From the NCBI GenBank assembly GCA_023512255.1, contig JAILZY010000048.1:1-25830 (forward strand): a stretch of 25,830 nucleotides of DNA, given 5' to 3'. The position numbers and the translations under genes were made by a program. Under the pieces are notes generated by a model. It saw nothing but the letters and a program-made list of their open reading frames with translations, made no database searches and was not told the origin of the DNA. Within the stretch, counting starts at the first letter, position 1. Every line of letters starts with the position of its first letter. The stretch is from a bacterium (GTDB lineage: Bacteria > SZUA-182 > DTGQ01). This document shows positions 1 to 25,830 of the stretch, one piece after another.

Positions 1-106
1 TACTATTATCTTTTACCTCAATACCCTTCCCCTGCGGCTTATCTCCTCCTCCTAATTTAAACATGGGGAACATCTGTAAGTAATTTATTTCTCTTGACAT
101 CTTCAT
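1..106 (-). CDS. 5' end of an unrecognised protein, runs off the left edge
   Basis: Reading the minus strand from the ATG at 106-104 gives 35 uninterrupted codons to the window edge; an ATG at 100-98 is also possible. A GAGG lies 8 bases before the first ATG. The peptide includes MFPMFKLGGG and QGKGIEVKDN; I do not recognise the family and see no signal peptide in this part. Support for coding comes from a second copy at 25757-25830: the two copies differ at five bases plus one indel over about 73 bases, and most of the peptide is conserved. It is divergent from the gene starting at 199, with a dyad between them. Only the N-terminus is visible, so no function is proposed. Confidence 0.55.
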   Translation of the reverse strand, partial: MKMSREINYLQMFPMFKLGGGDKPQGKGIEVKDNS

Positions 107-116
107 AACCTCATGT

Positions 117-140
117 TATCTTCATCACTGTATGAAGATA
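117..140. promoter_or_regulatory. Perfect 9-bp inverted repeat between divergent genes, operator-like
   Basis: TATCTTCAT, a 6-base spacer CACTGT, then the exact reverse complement ATGAAGATA. It lies in the 92-bp gap between divergent starts at 106 (minus) and 199 (plus), where a dimeric regulator could control both. It could instead be a hairpin in the 5' leader of either transcript. No convincing -35/-10 pair was seen. Confidence 0.4.
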
Positions 141-198
141 CGATAAACTGGGATGTTTTTGCCTATAAGCATCTAACACTCCAGGAGAAATATGGTTA

Positions 199-1017
199 AT
201 GAAAAAAATACTTATCTTAGAAGATGACCCAGCAATAGCCAATATTATTAAAGAGAAAATCCGCAACACCAATTTCTTCGATTCTGATCTTGCTTCAAGC
301 CTAGATGAGGCAAAGTATAAAATTGAAAATAACCAGGGGGAATATTTCCTGGCTGTTATTGAACTCAACCTTCCTGGCACTCAATGCAGCGAATTTATTG
401 ACTATATCCTCTCTAAAAACATTTCTCCTATCATATTTACTTCAGAATATAACGATGAGATCCGAGATCGGATCATGTCGAAGAAAGTGATTGATTATAT
501 TGTTAAAAATGATGAAGAATCAATTGATTATCTTGTTCAAACCATTGAGAGGATATATAAAAATCAGTTTGTTAAGGTCATGGTTGTGGATGACTCCGAA
601 ATTTCAAGACAATACCTGGTCGATATTTTGAAGGTTCAAAAATTCATGGTCTTGGAGGCCAGAGACGGCCTTGAAGCTATCTCTCTGTTGGTGAAGAATA
701 AAGACACCAAATTAATCATAACTGACTATTTGATGGATAAAATCGATGGCTTCGAGCTGACCCGCAAAATTAGGAGACATTATTCCTCAAAACAGTTGGC
801 CATAATTGGCATCTCAGCTTACGGCTCAGGGCTTTTATCGGTAAAATTTTTAAAAAGCGGTGCAAACGACTTTATTATAAAACCTTTTGTGGAAGAAGAG
901 CTTCTGCTGCGAATTAGGCAAAATATTGAAATTTTAGAACAATTGGACGCTTATCAGAGGCTATCTCATGTCGATTATCTTACTCAGTTATATAATCGCT
1001 GTTTTTTTTCGAAATAG
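199..1017 (+). CDS. Response regulator with two receiver domains; N-terminal part of a frameshifted diguanylate cyclase
   Basis: Residues 1-120 and about 125-250 are two CheY-like receiver domains. In the second, the acidic pair (VVDDS), the phosphoacceptor Asp (LIITDYLM) and the Lys (FIIKPF) are all present. In the first, the acceptor position is Glu (AVIELNLPG), so it probably cannot be phosphorylated in the normal way. The chain then enters a GGDEF domain (DYLTQLYNR) and stops at 1015-1017, just after eight T at 1002-1009. With nine T the frame would read NRCFFFEIG, which fits the family, and continue through the GGEEF active site to 1445, giving a protein of about 415 residues. AGGAG lies about 11 bases before the ATG. 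As read, this half has no cyclase active site. Confidence 0.85.
   Translation: MKKILILEDDPAIANIIKEKIRNTNFFDSDLASSLDEAKYKIENNQGEYFLAVIELNLPGTQCSEFIDYILSKNISPIIFTSEYNDEIRDRIMSKKVIDYIVKNDEESIDYLVQTIERIYKNQFVKVMVVDDSEISRQYLVDILKVQKFMVLEARDGLEAISLLVKNKDTKLIITDYLMDKIDGFELTRKIRRHYSSKQLAIIGISAYGSGLLSVKFLKSGANDFIIKPFVEEELLLRIRQNIEILEQLDAYQRLSHVDYLTQLYNRCFFSK
1002..1009 (+). other. Run of eight T at the frameshift point of the diguanylate cyclase
   Basis: The upstream frame uses TGT TTT TTT TCG and reaches TAG six bases later. The downstream frame (TTC GAA ATA GGG) is open back to this run and supplies the missing GGDEF residues. One extra T gives a continuous and family-consistent reading. Possible causes are a sequencing or assembly indel, a fixed mutation, or a slippage-prone tract used for phase variation or transcriptional slippage. 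Confidence 0.75.
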
Positions 1018-1070
1018 GGAAGAAAATTTTTGAAAATGCTAAGAGGAAAAATCTGGAAATTACCACGGCC

Positions 1071-1445
1071 ATGCTCGATATCGACCATTTCAAATTGATC
1101 AATGATAACTATGGCCATGATATCGGCGATCTGGCCCTGAAGCATGTGGCGCAGATTATCTCGAAAAACTTGAGAGCCTCGGATATTATCTGCCGATATG
1201 GAGGAGAAGAATTTTGTATTTTAGCTATTAATATAAAAAAACCAAATGATTTTAAAGTTTTTGAAAAACTTCGTCTCTTGATTAAACAATCAAGGCTTCA
1301 ATTAGCCAACAGGGAAATATCGCTTTCTGTTTCTATTGGCGTAACTAGCCAAGTTTTTGATTCTCTTGAAGAAAATATAAAACATGCTGATGAGCTTCTG
1401 TATAAAGCTAAACAGCAAGGGCGAAACCGGGTTGTCGTGGATTAA
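1071..1445 (+). CDS. GGDEF (diguanylate cyclase) domain, C-terminal part of the frameshifted gene
   Basis: This holds the catalytic core of a GGDEF domain: MLDIDHFK for metal and substrate binding, the active site RYGGEEF, and a C-terminal VSIGVT segment. An RxxD inhibitory site (RASD) lies five residues before GGEEF, as expected for c-di-GMP feedback inhibition. The frame stays open upstream to the T run at 1002-1009, so the ATG at 1071 is internal to the family and probably not a real start. The most likely biological unit is 199-1445, a receiver-receiver-GGDEF protein making c-di-GMP from two GTP. A separately translated 124-residue fragment would lack the N-terminal part of the fold. Confidence 0.8.
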   Translation: MLDIDHFKLINDNYGHDIGDLALKHVAQIISKNLRASDIICRYGGEEFCILAINIKKPNDFKVFEKLRLLIKQSRLQLANREISLSVSIGVTSQVFDSLEENIKHADELLYKAKQQGRNRVVVD

Positions 1446-1523
1446 AAGCCGCCGCTAGAGCGCTGGTCTCCCCTGGCCTTTGAGTGAGAGAACTTGAGAT
1501 AACTAAAGATTCGAGATCCGAAA

Positions 1524-16519: not shown

Positions 16520-16554
16520 GATTCAGTTTCATAATGCGATTCAGTTTCATAATG
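16520..16554 (+). repeat. 18-bp tandem duplication that duplicates the start codon
   Basis: GATTCAGTTTCATAATG occurs at 16520-16536 and 16538-16554. Each copy ends in an ATG, and the period of 18 keeps both in frame, so the sulfatase-like gene can start at 16534 or 16552. Neither ATG has a clear ribosome binding site. Confidence 0.7.
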
Positions 16555-18942
16555 AGAAAAACACAGCTCATCCCGGGAAAAACAGAATATCACCTGAGCC
16601 AGACTATCCTTATCATCGCTCTCCTTATGCTGACTGCGGCCCCAGCCCCAGGGTGCAGAACTGCTCAAAGGCGGCAGCAAACCGCTTTAGATAAACCCAC
16701 TTTGGACAAAACGATCAGCCCCCCGCGGAATATACTGCTAATTACTATTGATACCCTACGGGCCGATCACTTGGGTTGTTATGGATACTCAGGCGTTGAC
16801 ACCCCAGCTATTGATTCCCTAGCCGCCAAAGGGGTTCGATTTGAGCTGGCCTTTACTCCGGTGCCGCTCACTCTCCCCTCGCATGTTACCATCATGACCG
16901 GCCTCTATCCTGTTACCCACGGAGTACTGAACAATGGAGAGTTTCGCCTGAATCCATCCGCCAGACCCCTGGCCCAAATTCTCCACCAACAGGGCTTTAC
17001 TACGGCTGCCTTTGTCGGAGCCTTTGTCCTGAGCAGGCAATTTGGCCTCGACCAGGGGTTTGACTGGTTTGATGATGATCTTTCTGGCTCGAGCCAGCAC
17101 CATAATAAAAAAAATAATAATAAAATAAATAATAATAAGAATAATAATCCAGATAAAACAGGTGCATCCCCTCATGATGAAGCCTTCAGGCTGTATAATG
17201 AGCGCCGGGGCGAGGCAGTTTCTGAAGCAAGCATCAGCTGGTTGAGAAATAAAAATCCTGACCGCTTTTTCCTTTGGGTACATTACTTTGATCCCCATAC
17301 CAGATATGATCCCCCAGAGCCGTTCCGAAGCAGATATCTTGATCGGCCATATGATGGTGAGATCGCCTATACGGATCACTGCATCGGGCTATTGCTAAAT
17401 GAGCTTGCCCGCCGCGGGCAATTAGATGAGACTCTCATCATACTAGTAGCCGATCATGGCGAGGGGCTCGGTGAGCATCGGGAAAGCACGCACGGCATCT
17501 TCCTCTATGAGGCTACGGTGAGGGGCCCTTTAATTATGTGCTATCCGGCTCTGCTGCCTGAAGGGTATGTCCATGCTCAGCCAGTCAAGACCCTGGATAT
17601 TCTGCCAACTGTGTTGGATATCTTAAAAATCCCCCAGCCACCGCAAATTCAAGGGATTAGTCTGCTCACCCATATAAGCCAAACAGGGCGGCCAGCAGCG
17701 GCAGTCTTTAAGGGAGCAGCCTCTGAAGAGACAATATCTGAGGGATCTGACAAAGAGGCCGAAAGGGGAGTTATTTTTCTTGAAACTCGCTTCCCAGAGG
17801 CTAATTTTGGCTGGAGCCGACTCGAAGGGGTACGTAGCCGGCAATGGAAATATATCCTAGCCCCCCGCCCAGAATTATATAATCTATCGACCGATCCTCA
17901 TGAGCTCCATAATGTGCTCGATCAGTATCCGAAACAGGCTCAAAGACTTAAGGAAATGCTAGATAAGTTTTTAGCCCGTAACGCTTCTGATCCAAGGCCT
18001 AGCCAGATAAAAGAGCTGGATGAGGAAACCCGAGCCAGGCTTCAACAGCTGGGATATATAAAGATGACCCACCACCAGCACCTTGCTGCCGACCCCTCTG
18101 GCTCTCCTCCGCCCTGCTCTGGCTCTCCTTCGCCCCCTGATTCCCCTGATCCCAAGGACATGATTGATACCCTGGCTTTCTTTGATCAGGGAAGCGAGCA
18201 ATACGCGGCCGGACAATACCAGGCAGCTATCATCTCTTTTCGTCAGGTGCTATCTAAGGACAAGGGAAATATTATGGCTCGCTTTCTTCTGGGGGCAGCT
18301 CTCGAAAAGCTCGGCCTCCTTGAGCAAGCCCAGCAAGAATTCCAGACCGTAGCCGCTCAGGACACCGAGTTCATTAATATCCATCATAATCTTGGCGCGG
18401 TTTATGAAAAACTGGGCCAGTCTGATAAGGCCATAGCTGAATACCAGATGGATATCAGGCTTCATCCTACTGGAGCTGTTGCCTCCTATAATAATCTTGG
18501 AGGCATCTATCTCAAGCAAAGCCGCTATCAGGAGGCCAAAGAGCAATTCGAGAAATTGCTCCAGCTAAAACCAGACCTCACTACCCAGATCGTAGCTCAC
18601 ACTAACCTGGCCATAGCCTGTGAAATGCTTGGACAGTTAGACATGGCCCATCAGGAATACCAGCGCTCCCTCGACCTTGATCCGACCTATCTTCCCGGCC
18701 TAATGGGATTAGGTAATATCTTTCTCAAAACCAACCACCCGGAGCAGGCTATTCAGGCCTGGCAAAAGGCGCTAGAGATCAACCCCCAAAACGCCGAGGC
18801 CCATTTTAATCTCGGCTGCACTTTTCTGAAGCTCAACCGCCTTCCCGAAGCTGTCGAGTACCTTCAGGAAGCCGTTCAACAAGAACCAAACCTCTGGCAG
18901 GCTCGCTTACTGCTAGATCAGTGTAGAAAACAACAGCAGTAG
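16534..18942 (+). CDS. Sulfatase-like (alkaline phosphatase superfamily) hydrolase with C-terminal TPRs
   Basis: A hydrophobic N-terminus (about 22-41) ends at Cys41 after APAPG, possibly a lipoprotein signal although the lipobox is poor. The catalytic domain (about 65-480) shows TIDTLRADHLGCYGY, PLTLPSH and VADHGEGLGEH. The nucleophile position is Thr113 (TLPSH), not the Cys or Ser of CxPSR, so it cannot be a formylglycine sulfatase; a phospho-ester or phosphotransfer activity is more likely. A proline/serine linker (about 515-535) leads to about seven TPR units (about 548-800). An Asn/Lys-rich tract (about 191-208), written in AAT/AAA repeats, interrupts the catalytic domain. It follows the beta-helix gene by 100 bp and probably belongs to the same surface set. 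The start may be 16534 or 16552. Confidence 0.85.
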   Translation: MRFSFIMRKTQLIPGKTEYHLSQTILIIALLMLTAAPAPGCRTAQRRQQTALDKPTLDKTISPPRNILLITIDTLRADHLGCYGYSGVDTPAIDSLAAKGVRFELAFTPVPLTLPSHVTIMTGLYPVTHGVLNNGEFRLNPSARPLAQILHQQGFTTAAFVGAFVLSRQFGLDQGFDWFDDDLSGSSQHHNKKNNNKINNNKNNNPDKTGASPHDEAFRLYNERRGEAVSEASISWLRNKNPDRFFLWVHYFDPHTRYDPPEPFRSRYLDRPYDGEIAYTDHCIGLLLNELARRGQLDETLIILVADHGEGLGEHRESTHGIFLYEATVRGPLIMCYPALLPEGYVHAQPVKTLDILPTVLDILKIPQPPQIQGISLLTHISQTGRPAAAVFKGAASEETISEGSDKEAERGVIFLETRFPEANFGWSRLEGVRSRQWKYILAPRPELYNLSTDPHELHNVLDQYPKQAQRLKEMLDKFLARNASDPRPSQIKELDEETRARLQQLGYIKMTHHQHLAADPSGSPPPCSGSPSPPDSPDPKDMIDTLAFFDQGSEQYAAGQYQAAIISFRQVLSKDKGNIMARFLLGAALEKLGLLEQAQQEFQTVAAQDTEFINIHHNLGAVYEKLGQSDKAIAEYQMDIRLHPTGAVASYNNLGGIYLKQSRYQEAKEQFEKLLQLKPDLTTQIVAHTNLAIACEMLGQLDMAHQEYQRSLDLDPTYLPGLMGLGNIFLKTNHPEQAIQAWQKALEINPQNAEAHFNLGCTFLKLNRLPEAVEYLQEAVQQEPNLWQARLLLDQCRKQQQ

Positions 18943-20399: not shown

Positions 20400-23300
20400 T
20401 CAATCCAGGCAAGAGGGCAGGCCAAGGTATTTCCTGAATAGGCACAGGGCATCAGCCGGAGTAACACTGCCGTTGCCGTCAACATCAGCACACTCATGGC
20501 ATGGGATAAAACCCAGGTAGCATCTGAAGGATAGCAAAGCATCAGCCGGAGTAATTTTTTTGTCTCCATTTAAGTCTCCGGTGCAGGTTTCGAGACAGAA
20601 GCAGCCGCCGCTGATGGTAAATTGGCCGATAGTGTCTACCGGTTTTTCTACCCTCAAGGGATAGCATTCGCCCTCTTTTTGACCGACGCTCTCTTTGACC
20701 TTGAATTTTAGCACTACCACTGCACCGCTTGTCCCCTTGGTTAGGCCGCGGTCGTAGTAGGGATCAAATCCGGCCACTCTCAGTCTGCCGGAGCCAAGCT
20801 CTATCACCTCAAAGATGGGGAAAGAGGTGGCCAGCAGATCCCCTCTCTCATAACCTGCATATTCCAAAACTTGGGGGTTATATGTCAGCTCAAACCCAAA
20901 GGAGTAGACTGTCTCGGGAGAATTTTGTATTCTGACTGGAATCTCAACCTGATCACCCGGCCTGCCCTTGACGCCGACCACATCCAACGCTCCCCACGTC
21001 TGCTCCTCACATTCAAGGCACAGGCAGCCGCCTGTGGTTGAAAATTCGATGAGATCGCCATCGAGCTCCTCCAGCCTCAAGGGGTAGCATTCTCCACCTT
21101 GAACCCCGCTCTTGACCTTGAATCTGAACACCACCAAAAAGCCGCTGGCTCCCTTAGCTATCTTGCCGCCAAAAGGATCAATGCCAGCTACTCTTATCCT
21201 GCCGGATCTGATCTCATTCACTCCAAAGACAGGCAAAGAAGCGGCCAACTCCCCTGGTTTGTAATTGCCCTCCTGGTATTCCAAAATCTCAGGATCATAG
21301 CTTAGCTCAAACCCGAATGATTCAACCGCCGAAGGCGCGTTCTGGATTCTTACGGCAATCTCAACCTGATCGCCCGGCCTTCCGCTAGCCCCTACGACAT
21401 CCAGCGCGCCTGAAGTCTCTTCTTGGCAGGCGCCTTGCTGTGATGATTCGCAGTTTTCATGAATAGCCTTATTCTGGTCATCGCAATCAGTGCCATCCTC
21501 AACATATCCAGAAGGCGCAGAGCAGGCCTGCACGCTCTTATTGGCATTCCCATAGCCGTCGCCGTCAGCATCAAGGTAGTAAGTGCGCATCAGGCCCTCA
21601 TCCACCAGCCCGTCGCAGTCATTATCCACACCATCGCAGACCTCAGGCTGAGGCTTAGGCGCCGTACAGCCTACCCAGCGGCCGCTTTGACAGATTTCCG
21701 TGCCGCTGCCACAAGCCGTTGAGCAGGTGCGCATCAGGCCCTCATCCACCAGCCCATCGCAGTCATTATCCACACCATCGCAGACTTCAGGCTCTCCCTC
21801 AAGCCTGGCCTCTATCTGCCGCGAGCTTGTAGCCGTAATCCCGTTCGGATCAGCCACCGTCAAAGTAACTGTATAGACGCCGGCGGCGCCATAGGTGTGC
21901 TGAGGGTTTTGCTCCTGGCTTCTTTGGCCGTCGCCAAAGTCCCAAAGCCAGGAGGTAATAGCTCCATCTTGGCAGGTTGACTTGTCAGTGAACTGGATTA
22001 TCGGTCGACAATTCTCTTCCCCTTTTTGCACCCAGCTAAAGCCTGCGGTGAGAGCGCTCATCCTCTTCACGCTGACACTGGCCGTATCCTGGCTGGTCAG
22101 TTTTCCGTCGCTCACCTCCAGCCTGACTGTCCCGCTCCAGTTATCCGGCCAAGTATGCTGGATGAGCGGACTACTCAGCCAATCCGTATCCCACCTGCCA
22201 TCATCGTCAAAATCCCAGCGATAAGAAAGAACATCGCCATCAGGGTCGATCGAGCCTGAAGCCTCAAGGGTCAGGGCAGATCCGGCAGCGCCGGCATAGG
22301 AGCCGCCAGCATTGGCCACCGGCGCCCGGTTGAAGGCCACCACCGAGACAATACCATTGGTTTTGGTTGCCTCAGGCACAGAGGGGAAATACACGGTCGC
22401 AAAGTTTATGACCTCCGCTCCATACGGCGCCTCATCCTTAACCTTGGCGCTCAATTCAGCATAGCCGCCTTCCTTCGGCCCAACCTCGCCAACAAACCAG
22501 GTTATGGTTCGGCTCTGCGGATCATAGACCCCGGGTGGGGCAATCTCCGAGCCGTCTTTAGTGCTCCTCACCGGACCAATCGTGAGGGTTGAATCATCAA
22601 GGTCTTCATCCAGCGTGTCGGTGAAATACACCCCAAAGGCAATCCCCTCGCCCTCGTTCTCAAACTCAACCTTGTAGTCCAATTGCTGGCCAGGCAAGAT
22701 AGTGCCCTGCGGACCATACTTGAGATTAGGATCATGAGCAGTGGTGATGGTGCTGGTGTGGGAGGAAGAGGTAAGGGTGTTTTGAATTTCCTCTATTTCT
22801 TTCTTTTCCTTTATCTCATCTAAAGATCTTTCAATACCCAATCCTTCACTATAATATAAATCAACTAAATCTCCAAAATTTTTATTGAGATTGAACTTAT
22901 CTTCCCCCTTCTTAGGTAAAACGTTATCAATACAATTATCCACTTTCTCTGTTTCTTTGCACTTCTCAAACCAATAGTAAATTTCTCCAGAAGTTTTAAA
23001 TACTTCAAGCATTTCTTCTTCCAAATAGTACTTAGGTAAAAACCCCTTACAATCTTCCAACGCCTTATCTGATGAAAGCCCTGCGCTTCGCATATTCAGA
23101 TAGCATGTCAAGAAAGGCTTCCATACGATAACTCTGATAGCAAATTTCTTTGTTACATTTTCTACATTTTCCAATATCTCTAACATCGTAAACCAAATCG
23201 TAGAATAAGCTAATCCAAATGAAATAAAGGGAGATAGAGATGCAAGGTAAGGGATCTTCGTAGCTATCTTATTAATCTTAGGTAAAAGCTCAGATAGAGT

Positions 23301-25751
23301 GCCTAAGCTTTGAAATAATTTTTCCCAACCTTCTCTCCCCTTTACCGCGTCAACACCCTCTGTTAGTATCTCAGTTCCCATCAGTACAACCTTACCAACC
23401 TGAATCCAGGATAACATTCTCGCCAACATAGGGAAAGCATCTTCTCCATAGAATAATAGGGAAGTTTCAGCTAAAATTTCACTAGGCAATATACTTAATT
23501 CTATAACCTTAAGAGTTTCAACACTATTTTTAACAGCATCCTTAATTTTTTCAATAAGGTTATTAGTAGCGTCTATCTCTGATGGTTTTAATTGCTTTAT
23601 GGTAATTTCATTAAAATTACCCTTTACCACCATGTCAAGAAATTTATCGGGAATCTCTTCTTCTTTAACTCCTATAACTAAAGTTAATAAGACCTTTAGT
23701 ACTTCTTTCTTATCATTTATTATTCCTTCATCCTCATCTTCCTCATCTCTAAATCTAACTTTTCTATCAAAACTATTTTCTGTCCTCACCTCCACAGGAA
23801 AATCATAACCCATCCTGAGGCGGGATTCAGTCGGTAATACATTAGCATTTTTCTCTTTGGGAATCCTGACTGTATTCTTAAAAGTAGAGCCATTCGCCAG
23901 CCCCCAGACAACTCTTGCTTTAGTCGTCAGGCAGGTCTTAGCCTTTGGCCCCAAGTTCTTGAGGAGCCAACTAACTTCACGCCATACTTTTTGATAGCTT
24001 CCTCCGCCTGTATTCGAGATATACTCCACCTCCTTGGGCAGCTTATCAATCACCCTTACATCCTCAGCCGCCTTCAGCCCTTCGTTTCTCACCTCAATGA
24101 TATAATCTATGGTTTGCCCAGGGCTGACCCGGCTTGGCCCCCAGGTCGAAATCTTTAATTCCGGCGCAGGCGCAGCCCCTACATCCAGCCGCTCAAGGTC
24201 TAGCAGGATGCTTCTTTTCACCTCACCGTTATCAGCCTCAGACTCAGACAAAGTAGCGTAAAGCAAACCGGTCAAAGGAGCGCTAAACAGCCCGTTTAAT
24301 TTGATTATCCCCGGTTGAAGCTCTCGATCATAGCTCCAGCCCTCCCCTGATCCGGCCTCAGAGGTATAGGAAATGATTGAAAATCCCTGGCCATGATAAG
24401 GATTGGTCTGATCAACTATCCTGACCTGGGTCAAAACCGTACTCACCGGACCTTGATAATGTCCATGGAACTCGCCATTGACCGAGGTCTGAAGAGCAAT
24501 GATCCGGCTCGCCGGATAAGTGGCCTCCTGCTGGTAGGAAACCACAGCTTCAAGGGTTAAGGTTGCCGAAGTGATTCTATCGCTCACCCTGGCCAATCTC
24601 CAGTCCGCCTGGAGTTGATCATACCTGCCGCTGCCAGGCGAAGATTCTATAATCTGGCCCTCGACAATACCTAAAAGGTCGCCCGAGAGAGCCCCTTTGA
24701 GATAAATTTTCCTCTCCGACTCCTTGAAGAAGAACATTCCTTGCCATTCTCCCTGACAGGGTAGAGTCTCAAGCGTAGCCTCATACTTCCCTTTCATAAA
24801 GCCTTTTCCGGCAAAAGGCCCAGTGGTGATAGTAACCATCTCTAGGCTTGGGAAGCTGATCTCGCCGCTCAGATCGCCGGAAACAGAAACATTGTCCAGG
24901 ATTAATTTCTGGCTGACCACAGTTTCCGTCAGGGTTGACTGTGCTGATGAAACCTCAGACATAGCTGAAATCGCTCCTGCACTCCGCACCGCCCGCACAT
25001 AGTATTTGGTGGCACTAGACTTTCGATTGCCGGAGGATATTCCCCCGTAGTCAAAGCTCACATACCAGGCGTTGTCAGGTGAGCAGTGATTCACAGTCGA
25101 TGACCAGTAGCCGGAAGATTTGGTTCCAGGGAAAGAATTTGGGTCTATGGCCGGATTGTAGCGGCTGTAATCCACCAGAAATTGCAGCTCATTGACCGTC
25201 GGCAGCCGCCAATCGCTGTAGCCGCCAAGGGCAAGCCCCTCGCAGTAGCGCAAAGCCTCCTCCCAGCTCATCGGCCCCACCGTCTCCTGCTGCCACATCA
25301 GCCCGCTGGCCACATCACTCACTGTGCCATCTCCATTGACCATCAGCGAGCCGTTGAGGTAGCTGTTGCCGTATATATGCTCTTTTCTATTTTCTTTTAT
25401 AGTCGTAAGTAAGGAGGTACTGCGCACAGCCCGCACATAGTATTTACTCAACCTGCCAGCGGAGGATATCCCCCCGTAGTCAAAGCCCACATACCAGACA
25501 TTGTCAGGCGAGCAGTGAACCACGGTCGATGACCAGTAGCCAGAAGAGGTGGTCCCAGGGAAAGAATTTGGGTCTATGGCCGGATTGTAGCGGCTGTAAT
25601 CCACCAGAAATTGCAGCTCATTGACCGTTGGCAGCCGCCAATCGCTGTAGCCGCCAAGGGCAAGCCCCTCGCAGTAGCGCAAAGCCTCCTCCCAACTCAT
25701 CGGCCCCACCGTCTCCTGCTGCCACATCAGCCCGCTGGCCGCATCACTCAC
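20400..25751 (-). CDS. Giant mosaic surface protein: DUF1566 x2, DUF11-like, PKD, MopE-like, cohesin-like, dockerin; 5' end truncated
   Basis: The 1783 residues show, in order: DUF1566 copies (1-110 and 144-257); an unrecognised beta-rich region (about 275-525); a DUF11-like domain (about 531-645); an AT-rich helical insert (about 655-990); a second DUF11-like domain (about 1005-1140); two PKD domains (1142-1229, 1233-1316); MopE-like repeats with CDGVDNDCDGLVDEG twice (1320-1388) and a DxDGDGYG box; two cohesin-like domains (1447-1580, 1587-1720); and a dockerin with two calcium loops (DLNGDKKIT, DVDGNGSVT). It is expected outside the cell, yet no signal peptide exists. The GTG start at 25751 lies inside the first DUF1566, seven codons after a TAA, and has no ribosome binding site. 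The real 5' end is missing through rearrangement or assembly chimerism. As it stands it may be a pseudogene. Confidence 0.85.
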   Translation of the reverse strand: MSDAASGLMWQQETVGPMSWEEALRYCEGLALGGYSDWRLPTVNELQFLVDYSRYNPAIDPNSFPGTTSSGYWSSTVVHCSPDNVWYVGFDYGGISSAGRLSKYYVRAVRSTSLLTTIKENRKEHIYGNSYLNGSLMVNGDGTVSDVASGLMWQQETVGPMSWEEALRYCEGLALGGYSDWRLPTVNELQFLVDYSRYNPAIDPNSFPGTKSSGYWSSTVNHCSPDNAWYVSFDYGGISSGNRKSSATKYYVRAVRSAGAISAMSEVSSAQSTLTETVVSQKLILDNVSVSGDLSGEISFPSLEMVTITTGPFAGKGFMKGKYEATLETLPCQGEWQGMFFFKESERKIYLKGALSGDLLGIVEGQIIESSPGSGRYDQLQADWRLARVSDRITSATLTLEAVVSYQQEATYPASRIIALQTSVNGEFHGHYQGPVSTVLTQVRIVDQTNPYHGQGFSIISYTSEAGSGEGWSYDRELQPGIIKLNGLFSAPLTGLLYATLSESEADNGEVKRSILLDLERLDVGAAPAPELKISTWGPSRVSPGQTIDYIIEVRNEGLKAAEDVRVIDKLPKEVEYISNTGGGSYQKVWREVSWLLKNLGPKAKTCLTTKARVVWGLANGSTFKNTVRIPKEKNANVLPTESRLRMGYDFPVEVRTENSFDRKVRFRDEEDEDEGIINDKKEVLKVLLTLVIGVKEEEIPDKFLDMVVKGNFNEITIKQLKPSEIDATNNLIEKIKDAVKNSVETLKVIELSILPSEILAETSLLFYGEDAFPMLARMLSWIQVGKVVLMGTEILTEGVDAVKGREGWEKLFQSLGTLSELLPKINKIATKIPYLASLSPFISFGLAYSTIWFTMLEILENVENVTKKFAIRVIVWKPFLTCYLNMRSAGLSSDKALEDCKGFLPKYYLEEEMLEVFKTSGEIYYWFEKCKETEKVDNCIDNVLPKKGEDKFNLNKNFGDLVDLYYSEGLGIERSLDEIKEKKEIEEIQNTLTSSSHTSTITTAHDPNLKYGPQGTILPGQQLDYKVEFENEGEGIAFGVYFTDTLDEDLDDSTLTIGPVRSTKDGSEIAPPGVYDPQSRTITWFVGEVGPKEGGYAELSAKVKDEAPYGAEVINFATVYFPSVPEATKTNGIVSVVAFNRAPVANAGGSYAGAAGSALTLEASGSIDPDGDVLSYRWDFDDDGRWDTDWLSSPLIQHTWPDNWSGTVRLEVSDGKLTSQDTASVSVKRMSALTAGFSWVQKGEENCRPIIQFTDKSTCQDGAITSWLWDFGDGQRSQEQNPQHTYGAAGVYTVTLTVADPNGITATSSRQIEARLEGEPEVCDGVDNDCDGLVDEGLMRTCSTACGSGTEICQSGRWVGCTAPKPQPEVCDGVDNDCDGLVDEGLMRTYYLDADGDGYGNANKSVQACSAPSGYVEDGTDCDDQNKAIHENCESSQQGACQEETSGALDVVGASGRPGDQVEIAVRIQNAPSAVESFGFELSYDPEILEYQEGNYKPGELAASLPVFGVNEIRSGRIRVAGIDPFGGKIAKGASGFLVVFRFKVKSGVQGGECYPLRLEELDGDLIEFSTTGGCLCLECEEQTWGALDVVGVKGRPGDQVEIPVRIQNSPETVYSFGFELTYNPQVLEYAGYERGDLLATSFPIFEVIELGSGRLRVAGFDPYYDRGLTKGTSGAVVVLKFKVKESVGQKEGECYPLRVEKPVDTIGQFTISGGCFCLETCTGDLNGDKKITPADALLSFRCYLGFIPCHECADVDGNGSVTPADALCLFRKYLGLPSCLD
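20403..20588 (-). other. C-terminal dockerin type I module of the giant protein
   Basis: Residues 1722-1783 hold two copies of a calcium-binding loop plus helix: DLNGDKKITPADALL and DVDGNGSVTPADALC, each followed by a Phe-Arg-x-Tyr-Leu-Gly helix end. Cysteines just before and after the second loop may form a disulfide. Dockerins bind cohesins, and this chain carries two cohesin-like domains directly upstream. Confidence 0.85.
20589..21410 (-). repeat. Tandem pair of cohesin-like domains in the giant protein
   Basis: Residues 1448-1580 and 1587-1721 are homologous. Shared segments are GALDVVG, GRPGDQVEI, VRIQN, SFGFEL, LEY, GRxRVAG and GECYPLR. The pattern with a PGD turn and Y-(D/N)-P-x-x-LEY is that of cohesin-type beta sandwiches. 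The DNA of the two copies is also recognisably duplicated, for example near 20935-21000 and 21350-21415. Each ends in a short cysteine cluster (CLCLEC, CFCLETC). Confidence 0.75.
21588..21795 (-). repeat. Duplicated MopE-type calcium/copper-binding repeat
   Basis: Two almost identical segments encode PEVCDGVDNDCDGLVDEGLM at 1319-1339 and 1368-1388. Over about 60 bases the DNA copies differ at very few positions, so the duplication is recent or homogenised. A related TDCDDQNKAIHENC unit follows. Cysteine- and aspartate-rich repeats of this kind occur in outer-surface proteins of several diderm groups. Confidence 0.75.
22785..23795 (-). other. AT-rich segment encoding an unrecognised helical domain within the giant gene
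   Basis: The base composition changes sharply. Sixty-base lines at 22861 and 23521 contain 18 and 17 G+C, against 36 in the line at 21601. The segment encodes about residues 655-990: a charged start (RFRDEEDEDEG), amphipathic helices, a hydrophobic stretch near 830-862 (YLASLSPFISFGLAYS and on), four cysteines (883, 901, 931, 940) and a Lys/Glu-rich end. It is flanked on both sides by DUF11-like beta domains. I do not recognise the family. It fits a horizontally acquired domain insertion, but the frame is intact and it may belong to a known large-protein arrangement. Confidence 0.6.
24981..25751 (-). repeat. Tandem DUF1566 (Lcl-type) repeats
   Basis: Copy 1 is 25751-25422 and copy 2 is 25322-24981, joined by a linker of about 33 residues. 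Over the first 200 or so bases they differ at only three positions. In the last third, from the SSGYWSST motif on, differences cluster (T/K, V/N, V/A, G/S) and an indel of three codons appears before the shared KYYVRAVRS end. DUF1566 has a C-type-lectin-like fold and is usually extracellular. Confidence 0.8.
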
Positions 25752-25756
25752 TGTGC

Positions 25757-25830
25757 CAGATGTTCCCCATATTTAAAATTAGGAGAAGTAGATAAGCTGC
25801 AGGGGAAGGGTATTGAGGTAAAAGACAATA
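25757..25830 (+). pseudogene. Frameshifted fragment paralogous to the gene at the left edge, runs off the right edge
   Basis: From codon 11 (CAG ATG TTC CCC) this matches the minus-strand gene at 1-106, but in the opposite orientation, pointing out of the window. One extra A in the run at 25775-25778 breaks the frame; without it the peptide reads MFPIFKLGEV then DKLQGKGIEVKDN. The first ten codons are absent: the sequence switches directly to the DUF1566 coding sequence of the giant gene. It may be a true pseudogene, or this edge may be a poorly assembled repeat. Confidence 0.5.

What the first reader, a model, noticed from the sequence alone, without database searches (positions are those of the whole stretch)
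22785..23795. Compositionally foreign helical domain inside a beta-sandwich mosaic protein
About 1 kb of the giant gene drops to near 30% GC in sampled lines while its flanks are near 50-60%, and the protein changes from beta-rich extracellular modules to about 330 residues of charged and hydrophobic helices. It sits exactly between two DUF11-like domains. I do not recognise it. A membrane-active, toxin-like or immunity-like cargo carried on a surface scaffold is one speculative reading.
Basis: partly seen in the sequence, partly recalled or inferred. Interest (0 to 1): 0.65.

Follow-up and report, generated by a model that had tools for sequence, protein, structure and literature searches.

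The report
Swapped helical module in adhesin slot
A huge bacterial surface protein carries an orphan, AT-rich helical module in a slot between two stalk domains, and relatives in other bacteria and archaea carry unrelated modules, or none, in the same slot, so the slot looks like a site where surface proteins exchange working parts.

Summary
Residues 622-990 of the 1783-aa ORF (window 22782-23888, minus) form a sharp compositional island: GC3 0.27 inside, 0.59 outside, with 0.587±0.024 expected from the protein's own codon use. The domain is predicted all-helical (low-confidence model) and lies between a DUF11 and a DUF7619/DUF11-like domain. It matches nothing in Pfam, NCBIfam, PHROGs, PADLOC, PDB, phages, plasmids, IMG/VR, GTDB contigs or 144 other genomes.

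The decisive result is comparative. The flanking core (beta module + DUF11 + DUF7619, residues ~260-1145) recurs as single, sporadic copies in 17 loci from archaea and bacteria. It sits inside unrelated N- and C-terminal contexts and breaks at the same place. That slot holds a Cys-rich family A (10 loci), a family B (3), short unrelated inserts (2), or nothing (2); ours is unrelated to all. Two sister cores (65%/86% identical flanks) carry unrelated inserts, so contents are exchanged.

The DUF7619 flank keeps an invariant Lys-Asp-Asn set like the isopeptide triad of adhesin stalks. Best reading: a horizontally exchanged recognition or effector head on a fibrillar-adhesin stalk. Toxin, immunity or membrane activity is not supported. 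Biochemical function remains open.

The parts
20400..25751 (-). Giant mosaic surface protein ORF, 1783 aa; its 5' end is cut off by the contig end (contig C38 = 25830 bases)
24984..25751 (-). Tandem Lcl_C (DUF1566) domains, host-genus N-terminal module
24162..24962 (-). Unnamed beta module (residues ~264-530), first part of the travelling core
   Evidence: blastp to L087-L097
23856..24140 (-). DUF11 (residues 538-632), N-terminal border of the slot
   Evidence: PF01345; two DUF11 stretches, 70.0 bits for the whole protein, cutoff 24.6
22782..23888 (-). Slot content: compositional island by GC3 segmentation (residues 622-990); the helical domain proper is residues 655-990 (22782-23789)
22320..22739 (-). 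DUF7619/DUF7927, DUF11-like domain (residues 1005-1144), C-terminal border of the slot; K1011, D1045 and N1116 invariant in 13 of 13 sequences
   Evidence: triad spacing compared with PMC12617251
21798..22319 (-). Two PKD domains
20403..21797 (-). MopE motifs, two cohesins and a type I dockerin: host-genus C-terminal module shared with dozens of other proteins

Best explanation
The helical stretch is an exchangeable module sitting in a conserved slot between DUF11 and DUF7619 of a horizontally travelling adhesin core. SHOWN: a sharp compositional island whose edges match the slot edges found from relatives; a core found as scattered single copies across archaea and bacteria; slot contents that are unrelated, or absent, while the flanks stay recognisable (mostly 36-53% and 62-74% identical to ours). 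INFERRED: recombination in the conserved flanks swapped an AT-rich foreign module into this copy, probably replacing the commonest content (the Cys-rich family A). The protein is a fibrillar-adhesin-like stalk (DUF11/DUF7619 beta-sandwiches, with a probable isopeptide bond in DUF7619) attached through the host's cohesin/dockerin module, and the helical module projects from the stalk as an extracellular recognition or effector head whose exchange changes the target. The confidence given is for the exchanged-module statement; that the head is a binding/recognition domain is about 0.45, and that it is a toxin-like effector about 0.12.
For: Composition: GC3 0.27 against 0.59, edges 622 and 990. 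Homology: local alignments to the 12 core relatives found in the genome scan stop at or near residues 618-645 and resume at about 968-1005 in most; L092 and L095 align weakly further in, at shuffle level apart from the L092 hint. Content: family A in 10 loci; family B in L092/L095 (z 17.6) plus L093 (HHalign 73%); 30-residue linkers in L089 and L091; ours like shuffled sequence against A and B (HHalign 0.2% and 0.9%). Exchange: L092 and L096 are sisters in both flank trees (95/91 and 98/96), with flanks 65%/86% identical and slots unrelated (z 0.8), while each slot is related to that of a more distant core (z 17.6 and 37.6). Slot GC3 deficit: ours -0.29 (z -7.8); next largest -0.14. Sporadic core: 1 of 9 genomes in the host's own class, 1 of 58, 1 of 12, 1 of 4 and 1 of 393 in four other groups. 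Stalk role: PMC12617251 describes DUF11 (CLIPPER) as a stalk domain of fibrillar adhesins and lists an isopeptide triad for DUF7619; the equivalent K27, D61 and N132 are invariant here.
Against: No homolog of the helical module was found anywhere, so its donor, and its life as an independent module, are not shown. Structure confidence is low. Part of the slot AT-bias may be intrinsic: other slots are also slightly AT-rich (median GC3 difference -0.04 without ours, p 0.05). No binding partner, enzyme motif or expression evidence exists. L092 shows a marginal similarity to our slot's first third (z 3), so remote kinship to family B is not fully excluded.
Confidence: 0.8

Rival explanations
1. 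The island is an old, constant part of the protein whose low GC reflects local relaxed selection or AT-biased drift in an exposed, fast-evolving domain rather than transfer.
For: Other slots are slightly AT-rich relative to their flanks, especially L119, L120 and L118. Slot sequences evolve faster than flanks.
Against: The shift is twice the next largest and z -7.8, with sharp edges. The content is not alignable to any other slot family. Host dockerin proteins of the same genome keep GC3 near 0.5 along their lengths, with few exceptions.
Confidence: 0.1
2. The helical module is a secreted toxin or pore-forming effector displayed on a surface scaffold, as in contact-dependent or polymorphic toxin systems.
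For: Exchangeable content on a conserved secreted carrier resembles polymorphic toxins (PMC3482391). The helices are hydrophobic and charged.
Against: The slot is internal, flanked on both sides by stalk domains. No toxin or PADLOC hit. No transmembrane-grade helix. No small immunity-like gene beside the C-terminus: the neighbour is a convergent hemW-like gene.
Confidence: 0.12
3. An assembly chimera in a metagenome bin joined an AT-rich fragment into the gene.
For: The genome has 172 contigs and this contig ends inside the same gene.
Against: Both junctions are in frame with no stop across about 370 codons, and they fall at the domain borders that independent relatives from other phyla define.
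Confidence: 0.04

Closest known systems
DUF11/CLIPPER and DUF7619 isopeptide stalk domains of fibrillar adhesins (PMC12617251)
   Same: Both slot borders are these domains; DUF7619 keeps invariant Lys/Asp/Asn at spacings (+34, +105) close to the published example (+38, +107).
   Different: That survey treats tandem stalk repeats and notes that partner domains in archaeal proteins are rarely recognised. A defined slot between the two domains with exchanged orphan contents was not found in the passages read.
RTX adhesins whose ligand-binding domains bud out of Ig-like split domains (PMC12077191, PMC10865825)
   Same: Works alike in outline: a beta-sandwich stalk projects different head domains.
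   Different: Here the head lies between two complete Ig-like domains, there is no RTX C-terminus, and ligand binding is untested. Not a member.
Polymorphic toxins (CdiA, Rhs, Maf; PMC3482391)
   Same: Conserved carrier with variable, recombining part.
   Different: Variable part is internal, with no immunity gene and no toxin family hit. Not a member.
Cellulosome-like cohesin/dockerin proteins
   Same: The C-terminus has two cohesins and a dockerin.
   Different: No carbohydrate-active enzyme domain was detected in this protein.

Membership tests
DUF11 (PF01345) | HMM score above gathering cutoff at the N-terminal border | tested here: met
   70.0 bits for the whole protein vs 24.6, two stretches, best at 538-632
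DUF7619 (PF24595) | HMM score above gathering cutoff at the C-terminal border | tested here: met
   39.6 vs 27 bits, best stretch 1010-1122
Isopeptide-bonded stalk domain | Lys, Asp and Asn at isopeptide positions in DUF7619 | tested here: met
   K27, D61, N132 of the query invariant in 13 sequences; positions as in PMC12617251. The bond itself is not tested.
Isopeptide-bonded stalk domain | Covalent bond formed | not testable with these tools
   needs mass spectrometry or a structure
Fibrillar adhesin | Signal peptide at the N-terminus | not testable with these tools
   the N-terminus lies beyond the contig end
Polymorphic toxin | Variable toxin domain at the extreme C-terminus | tested here: not met
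   variable part is internal; C-terminus is a conserved dockerin
Polymorphic toxin | Adjacent immunity gene | tested here: not met
   downstream neighbour is a convergent hemW-like gene
RTX adhesin | RTX beta-roll and type I secretion signal | tested here: not met
   no RTX family in Pfam scan
Slot families A and B | Detectable homology of our slot content | tested here: not met
   HHalign probability 0.2% and 0.9%, near shuffles; L092 local score z 3 is a weak hint

The most novel reading that the evidence does not exclude
A single adhesin core moves between archaea and bacteria and carries a dedicated exchange slot for orphan domains; the slot contents are unrecognised folds that set the target of contact between cells, and this copy is a recent swap caught before amelioration.
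Probability: 0.35. Interest if true: 0.72.

Novelty: new variant of a known kind. Interest (0 to 1): 0.52.

Why it matters
Stalk domains such as DUF11 are recognised in archaea and bacteria, but the domains that accompany them in archaeal proteins are rarely recognised (PMC12617251). The fixed borders found here (DUF11 end, and the [HR]DPN.KYGP start of DUF7619) give a simple way to cut out those heads from any genome, producing a catalogue of unknown domains to express and test. The copy in this window, with its composition not yet ameliorated, suggests that swapping is recent.

Tried and rejected
Searches of the helical domain in Pfam, NCBIfam, PHROGs, PADLOC, PDB sequences, phages, plasmids, IMG/VR and GTDB contigs and 144 other genomes gave nothing usable. 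Single-sequence AlphaFold2 and Foldseek were uninformative, as were the family A model and its Foldseek and profile searches; its best-ranked region (about residues 36-123) is alpha+beta but has no match. The idea that the same-genus ortholog is a simple before/after case was dropped: it lacks the whole core and has a different middle. The idea that low GC is general to the cohesin/dockerin proteins was rejected. A resemblance of family A to Cys-rich bacteriocin precursors, recalled from memory, found no support in NCBIfam or Pfam. Core searches in viral contigs found none. Literature searches found no description of this slot.

Full report
The observation. The ORF at 20400-25751 (minus) encodes 1783 residues whose 5' end is cut by the contig end. 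GC falls from 0.50-0.60 to 0.31-0.41 over about 1.1 kb. The drop is strong at third positions. Segmenting GC3 alone gives residues 622-990, and resampling synonymous codons from the rest of the gene never comes near the observed value. Pfam places DUF11 on one side and DUF7619/DUF7927 on the other. The stretch is single copy in its genome. Its model is all-helical but of low confidence, and its hydropathy does not reach transmembrane grade.

No relatives of the domain itself. It is absent from 144 other genomes, including eight of the host's own class, and from phages, plasmids, viral contigs, GTDB contigs (pattern-based scan), PDB sequences, Pfam, NCBIfam, PHROGs and PADLOC. The pattern-based contig scans find close relatives only, so absence there is weak evidence.

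The scaffold is three layers deep. The outer layer (Lcl_C at the N-terminus; MopE, two cohesins and a dockerin at the C-terminus) belongs to the host genus: its C-terminal part recurs in dozens of proteins of this genome and of a same-genus genome, G001. The closest G001 protein (L038, 70-79% identical in the shared N-terminal segments and 75% at the C-terminus) has a completely different middle, containing another low-GC stretch (GC3 about 0.22-0.40) with a motif that looks like a PHP hydrolase, below the Pfam cutoff. The middle layer, residues about 260-1145, is a core found in 12 loci from Methanophagales, Hermodarchaeum, Thermoplasmata, Bathyarchaeota, Phycisphaerae, Sedimentisphaerales, Chloroflexota, Schekmanbacteria, a deltaproteobacterium and two unnamed bacteria. 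DUF7619 is up to 75% identical across these. Most surround the core with domains of their own: LVIVD propeller, NosD helix, LamG, RCC1, PPC and others. The core is sporadic: one genome in 58, 12, 4 and 393 in four groups searched, and one of nine in the host's class. Five further members, most with only the DUF11 and DUF7619 parts alignable, came from a fifth search and from a second copy in one genome.

The inner layer is the slot. In the relatives, similarity stops after DUF11 and resumes at the start of DUF7619. Between lie a Cys-rich family A in 10 loci, family B in three, a 138-residue and a 69-residue unrelated insert, or only a 30-residue linker in two. Our module is as unlike A and B as shuffled sequence, with one weak hint towards L092. 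Because A is the commonest and occurs in the most distant members, it is probably the original content (inference).

Exchange is visible directly. L092 (Chloroflexota) and L096 (Phycisphaerae) are sisters in trees of both flanks, 65% and 86% identical in the two flanks and 73-79% in DNA, yet their slots are unrelated; each slot is instead related to that of a more distant core. The trees are otherwise poorly resolved, so this one pair carries the argument. In our protein the evidence is compositional: the slot GC3 deficit is -0.29, against -0.14 for the next of 15 and a median of -0.04 for the others.

How it probably works. PMC12617251 shows DUF11 (renamed CLIPPER) to be an isopeptide-bearing stalk domain of fibrillar adhesins, lists DUF7619 with a Lys/Asp/Asn triad, and notes that partner domains in archaea are rarely recognised. 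In our alignment the Lys, Asp and Asn of DUF7619 are invariant at similar spacing. By analogy with RTX adhesins, where ligand-binding heads project from Ig-like split domains (PMC12077191), the slot content is most simply a head presented by the stalk. The analogy is in working, not in membership. A toxin reading remains possible but fails the positional and immunity-gene features of polymorphic toxins.

Limits. No ligand, structure or donor is known; the N-terminus is missing; and the host organism's name was not established.

Noticed in passing
L077 (G000:C113:1-6000, reverse strand) and L038:277-2806: A diversity-generating retroelement in this genome and in the same-genus genome: an Lcl_C target with C-terminal variable repeat, an Avd-like gene, then template repeat and reverse transcriptase. 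Template-to-variable mismatches fall at template adenines in 14 of 16 and 20 of 21 cases. DUF1566 (Lcl_C) is a known common target (PMC6642488).
   Followed up: partly
window 25419-25830; L038:2806-5135: In G001 the giant Lcl_C/dockerin gene lies directly downstream of the retroelement. Here contig C113 starts soon after the reverse transcriptase and contig C38 ends inside the giant gene's first Lcl_C, so the two contigs may be neighbours; no sequence overlap was found.
   Followed up: partly
L038:6450-8100 (about residues 660-1210 of the ORF): The same-genus relative carries a different AT-rich middle region (GC3 about 0.22-0.40) with a PHP-hydrolase-like motif (GDCHVHTNYKG...TTDHRS), below the Pfam cutoff.
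   Followed up: partly
own genome, e.g. C15, C88, C97, C122; G001, many contigs: A very large family of secreted mosaics ending in cohesin and dockerin modules: 60 matches to this protein in the own genome, from an unnamed lineage.
   Followed up: no
slot family A: L087, L090, L094, L096, L098, L118-L122: An undescribed ~310-365 residue domain with an alpha+beta N-part and a Cys-rich C-part, in the slot of archaeal and bacterial proteins, with no Pfam or NCBIfam match for those tested.
   Followed up: partly
window ~17100-17165: The sulfatase/TPR-like protein at 16534-18942 contains a low-complexity Asn/Lys run (NKKNNNKINNNKNNN), possibly a slipping repeat.
   Followed up: no
window 1-1500: A second AT-rich stretch (35-39% GC) holding a response-regulator ORF, against 43-52% GC in most of the neighbouring genes.
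   Followed up: no
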